In this document: one piece after another, positions 45,220-46,593 of the stretch
How the letters are laid out: each line of letters starts with the position of its first letter
How positions within the stretch are numbered: the first letter of the stretch is position 1
Made by a program: the position numbers and the translations under genes
Source of the DNA: an uncultured bacterium
GTDB taxonomy: Bacteria; Cyanobacteriota; Vampirovibrionia; Gastranaerophilales; Gastranaerophilaceae
Length of the DNA stretch: 46,593 nt
Assembly: GCA_902774905.1 (NCBI GenBank)
Contig: CACYKF010000008.1
Span: forward strand, 1-46,593
Direction: 5' to 3'
Notes under the pieces: generated by a model
Told to the model about the DNA's origin: nothing
The model's input: the letters and a program-made list of their open reading frames with translations, nothing else
Databases searched by the model: none

Positions 45220-45540
45220 TTATAATTTTACTTCAATATCAACGCCTGCAGGTAAATCTAATCTACTTAACTCTTCAGTTGTCTGTTGAGTCGGATCGTA
45301 TATATCAATAATACGCTTATGAGTTCTCATTTCGAAATGTTCACGAGATTTTTTATCTACATGTGGTGAACGCAAAACGCAATATATACGCCTTTTTGTA
45401 GGTAAAGGAATAGGTCCGGCTACTTTAGCGTCTGTTCTTTTCGCTGTTTCTACAATTTTTTCAGCGGATACATCAATAAGTTTGTGGTCATAAGCCTTTA
45501 AACAAACTCTGATTCTTGATTTTTTTGTGCTGTTTGCCAT
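45220..45540 (-). CDS. rpsJ: 30S ribosomal protein S10
   Basis: S10 belongs to the 30S head and doubles as NusE in antitermination. The 106-aa protein has [20 protein letters not shown] and [21 protein letters not shown] chose ATG 45540 with AAAGGA 9 nt upstream; the frame extends 14 codons further, but the in-frame ATG at 45549 lies directly against the Shine-Dalgarno. It is the first gene of the operon; tuf and fusA are not upstream. Confidence 0.96.
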
Positions 45541-45658
45541 CTTTAGCATTCCTTTATATTTTCTATGTACTACTTGAACCAAAAGCCCCGAAAAAGCCTT
45601 TGTTTCGTACCCAAAATTGCTATTTTACATACTTCGGACATTATTTTTGAGTATAACT

Positions 45659-45687
45659 ATACTATGACAAACAAAATTCACTGTCAA
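45659..45687 (-). promoter_or_regulatory. Promoter of the S10 ribosomal protein operon
   Basis: A perfect TTGACA and TAGTAT are 17 nt apart on the minus strand, about 120 nt before rpsJ. No other strong promoter is seen within the operon gaps. Confidence 0.7.
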
Positions 45688-45716: not shown

Positions 45717-46061
45717 TTAATTATTATTTATTTTTTGCCAGCCGTAAGCCTGCTTAGAAATTCCGTCAAAAATTTCTATTAATTCAGCATACTTATCAAT
45801 AGAAATTATTTTCAAATCCTTGGACAATCGGAGAAAAAGGTATATTAATTGTATATTTTCAATAATTTTACCAATTTGAACAGATTTATCAACACTTGAA
45901 TTTGCTTTATAAATTAAAACAATAACTTCAATAGCCGCATTTTGTATTCGTTCACCCAAAGAATATTTATATTCACGCGGGAAATGATTAATCATATTAA
46001 CAAGCCTGAAAAAAGCATCGTAAGAAGCCTTATAAATTAATAAATGTTGATATTGAGCCAT
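45717..46061 (-). CDS. avd: Avd-type four-helix-bundle protein of a diversity-generating retroelement
   Basis: In DGRs the Avd protein forms a pentameric basic barrel that binds the reverse transcriptase and template RNA during mutagenic retrohoming. The 114-aa product shows the family pattern: IYKASYDAFFRLVNMINHFP, REYKYSLGERIQNAAIEVI, LIYKANSS, LFLRLSKDLKIISIDKYAEL and a terminal GWQK. It lacks the IPSNIAEG motif typical of the related S23/23S-intervening-sequence proteins. A DGR-like template repeat lies just upstream on the same strand. AGGATG precedes the ATG. No reverse transcriptase follows; the next gene is rpsJ. Confidence 0.82.
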   Translation of the reverse strand: MAQYQHLLIYKASYDAFFRLVNMINHFPREYKYSLGERIQNAAIEVIVLIYKANSSVDKSVQIGKIIENIQLIYLFLRLSKDLKIISIDKYAELIEIFDGISKQAYGWQKINNN

Positions 46062-46074
46062 ATTTACATCCTAT

Positions 46075-46111
46075 AAAAAAAAGCGGTCAAAATTTGTATA
46101 AATTTTGACCG
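46075..46111 (-). terminator. Rho-independent terminator between template repeat and avd
   Basis: CGGTCAAAATTT/AAATTTTGACCG is a perfect 12-bp stem with a 4-nt loop followed by eight T on the minus strand. It would end a template RNA transcript before avd. Confidence 0.88.
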
Positions 46112-46131
46112 TGCGAAAATATATAATAAAA

Positions 46132-46281
46132 ACAAAATTTATCACCGACACAAACAGCCCTAAAGCTCGAATTGTTGCGGTTGTTGTTGTTCCTGTTCGA
46201 GTTCGAACTGTTGAAGTTCCGGTTGTACGCGTTGTTGGCACTTTTCTCACTACCTGACCACAAGTTGTACCAAGAGGAGCA
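46132..46281 (-). ncRNA. DGR template repeat (TR), adenine-rich, boundaries approximate
   Basis: Read on the minus strand from 46281, one frame gives CSSWYNLWSGSEK, then SANNAYNRNFNSSNSNR, then NNNNRNNSSFRAVCVGDKF. Twelve AAC codons and one AAT lie within 46171-46236. AAC runs in a lectin-like W-S-G-S...FRAVCV frame are the hallmark of DGR templates, because adenine mutagenesis of AAC reaches many residues without stops. A TAA directly precedes the frame, so this copy is not part of a protein gene, as expected for a TR rather than a VR. It lies immediately upstream of a terminator and avd. Confidence 0.85.
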
Positions 46282-46304
46282 TTACAATGGTCTAAAATCG
46301 CACA

Positions 46305-46320
46305 TCCCGAATGCTCGGGA
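46305..46320. repeat. TCCCGA-ATGC-TCGGGA palindrome
   Basis: This short relative of the TCCCGAA palindromes in the ribosomal operon lies next to the template repeat. Confidence 0.5.
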
Positions 46321-46593
46321 ATAGCGATGCCTGGCAAAAGCCAAACCTTTAGTTGCTCAAACACAACTGCCATTGACGTGATAAAAAAGGTACACCTTGC
46401 TACACCTTGGCATAAACAAGCTCTGACCTGTTTTTATCAATATTTTCCACATATTACTCCATGAATTTCATCAAACCAAAATATAAAGTATTACAAGCGG
46501 GAGAGGGCGTGATACAAAACCCTCTTTTAAACCCGCCATTTTTATTTTGTCATTGCGAGAAAATCTTTGATTTTCGTGGCAATCCCATTATTT
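46321..46593. other. Right-edge region without a recognised gene
   Basis: On the minus strand this is upstream of the template repeat, so it may hold its promoter; none is obvious. AAGGTGTAGCAAGGTGTA is a short direct repeat near 46395. AGAGGG/CCCTCT near 46502-46525 forms a stem. 46551-46583 is an ATTGCGAGAAAATC/GATTTTCGTGGCAAT palindrome of a type common in dispersed repeats. A reverse transcriptase gene could start beyond the edge. Confidence 0.4.

What the first reader, a model, noticed from the sequence alone, without database searches (positions are those of the whole stretch)
45717..46281. Part of a diversity-generating retroelement next to the S10 operon
A 150-nt adenine-rich segment encodes, in one frame, a C-type-lectin-like tail with 12 AAC codons and one AAT, and an Avd-type gene follows on the same strand. 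DGR template repeats have exactly this AAC bias because adenine-specific mutagenesis diversifies AAC codons. An in-frame stop directly upstream argues it is a template, not the expressed variable repeat. The reverse transcriptase and target gene are not in view, so the system is either cut by the window edge or dispersed. The order TR-terminator-avd differs from the canonical target-avd-TR-RT layout.
Basis: partly seen in the sequence, partly recalled or inferred. Interest (0 to 1): 0.92.

Follow-up and report, generated by a model that had tools for sequence, protein, structure and literature searches.

The report
Retroelement rewriting pilus-like proteins
In a bacterium of the gut order Gastranaerophilales, the window edge holds the template and helper gene of a reverse-transcriptase system that likely rewrites the tips of the cell's own pilus-like surface proteins; the two variable copies found elsewhere in the genome differ from the template mostly at its A letters.

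Summary
The template repeat (TR, window 46141-46278, minus strand) has two near-copies in the same genome. VR1 (contig C36) differs at 19 of 46 template adenines and 5 of 114 other bases; VR2 (C19) at 16 of 42 and 4 of 94. Each ends a gene for a prepilin-like protein with a likely C-type-lectin-like tail. A DGR-type reverse transcriptase lies just upstream of the VR1 gene. In 34 of 42 relatives holding both genes, pgm and rpsJ are neighbours; here pgm lies near the end of C36 and rpsJ near the end of C8, so one cassette, pgm | RT - target - TR - avd | rpsJ, was most likely split by the assembly. Across 38 target proteins, mean body entropy is 0.26 bits against 2.19 at adenine-bearing TR codons. 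One public relative matches the local target at 366 of 367 body residues; 14 VR codons differ, all adenine-bearing. Relative G024 has one TR and 12 adenine-biased VRs. Unexpectedly, the local target has ten Gs after its ATG and is out of frame as assembled, while that same relative is in frame: a possible second, on/off switch. New variant of a known kind.

The parts
46141..46278 (-). Template repeat (TR): 138 nt aligning with VR1 and VR2
   Evidence: adenine-biased mismatches to both VRs
46141..46163 (-). 3' end of the TR (TTAGGGCTGTTTGTGTCGGTGAT), identical in both own VRs; candidate homing-initiation end (inferred)
46279..46465 (-). Conserved leader upstream of the TR, likely the 5' part of the TR RNA (inferred)
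   Evidence: a 749-bp block (leader, TR, avd), about window 45723-46465, is 82% identical to G024 C18:1028-1774
46084..46111 (-). Hairpin followed by a T run between TR and avd (terminator-like)
45717..46061 (-). avd, DGR accessory gene, 114 aa
   Evidence: 84% identical in G024
45718..45721 (.). Right edge of the cassette, at the avd stop codon; the 320 bp beyond it are 99.4% identical to G006, which has other DNA in place of the cassette
45659..45687 (-). Promoter-like site ahead of the S10 operon (TTGACA-17-TAGTAT), outside the cassette
   Evidence: consensus match only
45220..45543 (-). rpsJ (S10), first gene of the flanking operon; used as synteny anchor
46466..46593 (-). Contig end; the DNA continues, most likely, into C36 with target gene and RT

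Best explanation
The segment is the template repeat and avd gene of a diversity-generating retroelement that likely makes mutated copies of the template and pastes them into the 3' ends of prepilin-like genes, one beside the reverse transcriptase and one elsewhere in the genome. The TR RNA would be copied by the reverse transcriptase with Avd, with errors at adenines, and the cDNA would replace the VR (inferred from the DGR family, not shown here). The cassette reads pgm | RT - target(VR1) - TR - avd | rpsJ on one strand; it was most likely split between contigs C36 and C8 (inferred from gene order). The product would be a type-IV-pilin-like protein whose likely C-type-lectin-like tail carries the variable residues.
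Confidence: 0.92

Rival explanations
1. The DGR is truly dispersed: TR and avd sit beside the S10 operon while RT and target sit elsewhere, acting only in trans.
For: They are on separate contigs with no exact end overlap; VR2 on C19 shows that one target is remote anyway.
Against: pgm-rpsJ adjacency in 34 of 42 relatives holding both genes; matching strand of all parts; G024 has a target 3' end, TR and avd together.
Confidence: 0.07
2. The system is decayed: TR and VR are fossils of past activity and nothing is rewritten now.
For: The local target is out of frame as assembled; G006, a close relative by pgm identity (96%), keeps a VR (18/44 A, 5/100 other) but its only RT match in the genus search is a distant one (36%); P0001 keeps the C19 VR unchanged.
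Against: RT, avd and both target bodies have open frames; the body of the local target is 366/367 identical to P0007 while 14 VR codons differ, which slow ordinary mutation would not give.
Confidence: 0.06
3. A low-complexity, asparagine-rich tail of a surface protein beside an S23/IVP-type four-helix-bundle gene.
For: The TR encodes an Asn/Ser-rich tail; the S23/IVP model also matches Avd, at 23.2 bits.
Against: bAvd scores higher and above its cut-off; in-frame stop upstream; VR copies differ at adenines; RT present.
Confidence: 0.01

Closest known systems
Bordetella phage BPP-1 DGR (brt, bavd, TR, VR in mtd)
   Same: RT, Avd, TR, adenine-biased VR at the 3' end of a target gene; the RT profile hits the 8ub7 chain best (that this is the BPP-1 enzyme, and the layout and fold of that system, are recalled)
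   Different: Likely order RT-target-TR-avd instead of target-avd-TR-RT; chromosomal; target is prepilin-like; one remote target
Cyanobacterial DGRs with remote variable proteins (PMC7517822, passages seen)
   Same: Remote VRs at 3' ends of C-type-lectin genes served by one genome's DGR
   Different: There most DGR variable proteins are predicted cytosolic, and the paper's text holds neither 'pilin' nor 'Melainabacteria'; here the targets carry a prepilin motif, in a non-photosynthetic order
Multi-target, trans-acting DGRs of Thiohalocapsa PB-PSB1 (PMC10907252, passages seen)
   Same: Targets at incomplete loci whose VRs match another locus's TR at non-adenine sites
   Different: Targets described there as putative antigen sensors in conflict systems; the text has no 'pilin'
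Multi-VR DGRs of the Yan et al. survey (PMC6642488, passages seen)
   Same: One TR serving many VRs is known (271 of 948 DGRs have multiple VRs); moved VRs and inverted RTs are known; pilin-linked DUF1566 domains are mentioned
   Different: Its text does not hold 'Melainabacteria'
Bacteroides type V pilus tip pilins diversified by DGRs (Macadangdang et al., seen only as a cited sentence in PMC12632263)
   Same: DGR diversification of a pilus protein with a C-terminal binding domain
   Different: Type V pilus lipoproteins, not type-IV-like prepilins
Homopolymer phase-variable surface genes, as in Campylobacter and Neisseria (search listing only)
   Same: Homopolymeric tract in the coding leader, in-frame and out-of-frame forms
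   Different: Here the switched genes also carry DGR variable repeats

Membership tests
Diversity-generating retroelement | Reverse transcriptase of the DGR type | tested here: met
   RVT_1 over cut-off; best PDB match 8ub7, E 5.6e-47 against 5e-13 for a group II RT (that 8ub7 is a DGR enzyme is recalled). GLPIGNLTSQ motif seen; its DGR meaning is recalled. NCBIfam gave only group II, retron and DRT models, all below cut-off.
Diversity-generating retroelement | Template repeat outside an open gene and a near-copy VR in a gene's 3' end | tested here: met
Diversity-generating retroelement | TR/VR differences concentrated at template adenines, to all three other bases | tested here: met
Diversity-generating retroelement | Avd-type accessory protein | tested here: met
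   Pfam bAvd 49.9 bits over cut-off 40; NCBIfam model best match but below its cut-off
Diversity-generating retroelement | Target with C-type-lectin-like fold carrying the variable residues | tested here: inconclusive
Diversity-generating retroelement | Adenine-specific mutagenic retrohoming observed | not testable with these tools
   Needs reads or a bench assay; protein diversity across 38 relatives is consistent
Diversity-generating retroelement | Homing initiation site and hairpin next to the VR | tested here: inconclusive
   VR1 is followed by the palindrome GTCAGGCAATTGCCTGAC; hairpins after the other VRs vary in sequence and may be terminators
Type IV pilin-like (class III signal) proteins | Prepilin N-terminal cleavage/methylation motif | tested here: met
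   TIGR02532 19.6 bits, cut-off 16.3, in the C19 target; Pfam N_methyl 20.5, just under 21.2. The C36 target as called from its first in-frame ATG starts inside the motif and gives no hit.
S23/23S rRNA intervening-sequence proteins | Best match to that family over its cut-off | tested here: not met
   23.2 bits, cut-off 33.8
Homopolymer phase-variable genes | Tract in the coding leader with in-frame and out-of-frame alleles of one gene | tested here: met
   Local target 10 G, out of frame; P0007, same body 366/367, is a protein with the same leader in frame. P0007's DNA was not seen, and both alleles rest on assemblies.
Homopolymer phase-variable genes | Reversible switching within one population | not testable with these tools
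   Needs reads

The most novel reading that the evidence does not exclude
Gastranaerophilales of this genus run a two-layer surface-variation system: one DGR template hypermutates the lectin-like tips of a dispersed family of prepilins (two VR-bearing copies in this genome, 12 in G024), while poly-G tracts between the start codon and the prepilin signal switch individual copies on and off, so that at any time a few of many ever-changing tips are displayed. In G024 all 14 tracts of nine or more G in the assembly sit in this one leader, 3 in frame and 11 not; the local target here is out of frame while a public relative with 366 of 367 identical body residues is in frame.
Probability: 0.55. Interest if true: 0.88.

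Novelty: new variant of a known kind. Interest (0 to 1): 0.74.

Why it matters
It joins a DGR to a type-IV-pilin-like gene family in a little-studied gut lineage and suggests that hypermutation and on/off switching act on the same genes. If so, the bacterium would combine a stream of new binding tips with a choice of which to show, comparable in effect to gonococcal pilin variation (recalled) but by another route. It also shows that a DGR can look incomplete merely because its repeated targets break assemblies, so surveys of short contigs will miss parts; the 2021 Nat Commun survey says itself that it would not detect remote targets (PMC8144416, passage).

Tried and rejected

Poly-G as a DGR-linked feature: tested against the family and NOT specific. 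Tracts of nine or more G occur in 233 of 288 family genomes. Of the 39 RT-bearing genomes, 11 have none and one has 176 (read by hand); I did not compare with the genomes lacking the RT. Of 20 tracts I picked from the listed places of five genomes not among those 39, 2 precede a prepilin motif (not a random sample). So the tract is a wider habit of the family that some DGR targets share. Of 15 prepilin-motif genes near such RTs in other named Gastranaerophilales, 5 have a G tract in the leader (L085, L088, L091, L093, L114); L085 and L114 are in frame, the other three not. The C19 target here has none.

Literature (PMC library only): 0 papers hold 'diversity-generating retroelement' and 'prepilin'. 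10 hold that term and 'pilin'; I saw passages of two of them (PMC6642488, PMC12632263). Of 92 papers with two of four terms, the 30 listed all have zero occurrences of the DGR term. One search gave one general review, not read. 26 papers hold the DGR term and 'phase variation' (20 listed); I searched three for passages on it: one uses the words for DGR diversification itself (PMC8778435), and no passage describes homopolymer switching of a DGR target. Searches were read as listings only, apart from the papers named in this report. bioRxiv was not searchable; the Bacteroides pilin paper was not held.

Kept in counts although they weaken them: P0009, P0016, P0017, P0025, P0027, P0028, P0030, P0032 and P0033 carry tails that align poorly to the TR; they are in the 38 and left out in the second figure. 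One search compared the G006 VR with G024's TR (21/46, 21/115); against the own TR it is 18/44 and 5/100.

Full report
What was found. The window is the whole of contig C8 of a 1.99-Mb, 51-contig genome. On its minus strand, at the right end, lie an AAC-rich segment, a hairpin, an avd gene and then the S10 operon. The segment holds 13 AAC codons in one frame; the next richest 150-nt windows hold 8. An in-frame TAA stands just upstream, so the segment is not the end of an open gene.

The missing parts. The genome has one reverse-transcriptase match, on contig C36 (14546-15667, 373 aa). A profile of it and four relatives matches chain 8ub7 (labelled 'Reverse transcriptase'; recalled as the BPP-1 DGR enzyme) at E 5.6e-47, against 5e-13 for the next, a group II enzyme. 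A DNA search with the TR finds two strong near-copies and 17 short weak ones: VR1 at C36:16899-17041 and VR2 at C19:21125-21260. VR1 ends a gene right after the RT; VR2 ends a 398-aa gene on C19. TR against VR1: 19 of 46 adenines and 5 of 114 other bases differ. TR against VR2: 16 of 42 and 4 of 94. Adenines change to C, G and T.

One cassette, split by the assembly. In 42 of the 45 other genomes of the genus searched, both pgm and rpsJ are found. In 34 of these they are on one contig and one strand, about 0.18 to 3.3 kb apart; in 8 they are on different contigs (tallied by hand). Here pgm ends 2.7 kb from the right end of C36 and rpsJ begins 1.05 kb from the right end of C8. All cassette genes point the same way. 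The simplest reading is pgm | RT - target - TR - avd | rpsJ. The left edge falls within the last codons of pgm (alignment to seven relatives stops at C36:14522-14527), and the RT start codon overlaps the pgm end. The right edge is at the avd stop in the G006 comparison, beyond which 320 bp are 99.4% identical to G006, which has other DNA between pgm and rpsJ. The S10 promoter-like site lies outside the cassette.

Relatives. It has 84% identical RT and Avd. Its C18 carries a target 3' end, TR and avd in that order, with an 82% identical 749-bp block over leader, TR and avd; its neighbour there is not the S10 operon. It has 12 VRs scattered over the genome, all adenine-biased (individual p from 1e-4 to 8e-11); summed, 221 of 502 adenines against 86 of 1292 other bases. 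Eleven of the 12 lie within 1 kb of a contig end, which fits assemblies broken at repeated targets. In the genus search an RT match was found in 6 of 46 genomes at E<=1e-20; two of these (G006, G038) are distant and have a small TR/VR pair of their own nearby, and one (G025) holds a stop. With the five-RT profile at E<=1e-70, 39 of 288 sampled genomes of the family match, in 13 of 41 genera. Named loci (best 80 kept of 138) show target-avd-TR-RT in several (L088, L091, L095, L114) and RT-target-avd-TR in L080 and L081.

Diversity in nature. A protein search gave 3575 relatives of the C19 target among the 8000 candidates scored, 120 listed. In the first 36 plus the two own proteins, mean column entropy is 0.26 bits in the body, 2.19 at VR codons with A at position 1 or 2 and 0.63 at other VR codons. 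Leaving out nine with odd tails, it is 0.26, 2.00 and 0.28. The strongest single case is P0007: 366 of 367 body residues equal the local target. Of the TR codons, 14 of 26 that hold an A differ between the two and 0 of 20 without A. By contrast P0001 is identical to the C19 target in its VR (47 of 47) with 9 body differences.

The poly-G tract. The local target has no in-frame standard start before its prepilin motif. Instead a Shine-Dalgarno-like site and ATG stand 36 nt before ten Gs, out of frame with the rest. P0007, P0035 and P0014 have the leader MLKLNNNNSLHLGGG in frame (their DNA was not seen). In G024 all 14 tracts of nine or more G in the assembly lie 35-50 nt after an ATG in this leader. 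In 9 the prepilin motif follows directly, in 2 (C17, C38) after 77 and 136 residues in the same frame. In the other 3 none was seen: C4's frame stops after 57 residues, and C12 and C33 run into the contig end. Three tracts are in frame with their ATG (C12, C17, C37), 11 not. A further gene with eight Gs (C6) is out of frame but open for 416 residues. In this genome 5 such tracts exist: two in this leader (C36, C11), one in another prepilin gene (C23), two elsewhere. The wider controls in Tried and rejected show that such tracts are common in the family and not tied to DGRs, so the switch is an addition shared by some targets, and its action is untested.

How it likely works. Shown by sequence: RT, avd, TR, two VRs, adenine bias, prepilin motif and diversity among relatives. 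Inferred from the DGR family: TR RNA is copied with adenine errors and the cDNA replaces the VR, in cis next to the RT and in trans on C19. Inferred: the altered tail sits at the exposed end of a pilus-like protein. Untested: ligands, expression, and switching.

Standing. It is a DGR by the tested features. Remote and multiple targets, altered gene orders and pilus targets are each known separately. New, as far as the searches named in Tried and rejected reach, are prepilin targets in this order, the likely RT-target-TR-avd order with TR ahead of avd, and the poly-G tract in DGR target leaders.

Noticed in passing
C36:15790-15799 (L022), C11:259-268 (L230), G024 tracts: Poly-G tracts between ATG and prepilin motif of DGR-target-family genes; the same leader is in frame in some public relatives (P0007, P0014, P0035), out of frame here: candidate phase variation.
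   Followed up: partly
288 family genomes: Tracts of nine or more G number from 0 to 176 per genome in this family; most of the 20 I sampled are not in prepilin leaders (2 are), and I have no explanation for the rest.
   Followed up: partly
G005 (L058, L059, L060): One genome carries three DGR-type RTs at separate places and 85 matches to the prepilin family; one of the RTs lies in a target-avd-TR-RT cassette, and no target was seen directly beside the other two.
   Followed up: no
G006 C36:94689-94828 (L074): Close relative keeps a VR-bearing target (18/44 A, 5/100 other against our TR), while its only RT match is distant and pgm-rpsJ holds other DNA: an orphan VR or an assembly gap.
   Followed up: partly
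G024 C18:2-573 (L062): The target copy next to the TR in G024 looks broken before its VR, while its VR is adenine-diversified (21/44 A, 9/117 other).
   Followed up: no
L077 (G006 C17) and L078 (G038 C7): A second, more distant small DGR type with TR and VR about 200 bp apart beside the RT.
   Followed up: no
pgm-rpsJ interval, loci L189-L195: The interval differs in content and length between relatives (about 0.18-3.3 kb): a variable spot next to the S10 operon.
   Followed up: partly
C19:54258-55336 (L229): A broken prepilin-family copy with internal stops; a 21-nt stretch nearby matches the TR's 3' end: possibly a decayed target.
   Followed up: no
L090: Several prepilin targets around one RT and TR, two of them with identical tails: local target multiplication.
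   Followed up: no
P0105: A predicted protein's tail holds RNNNNRNNDNPRVVCVGDKIRFYQIF, as if a TR were read in frame with a target.
   Followed up: no
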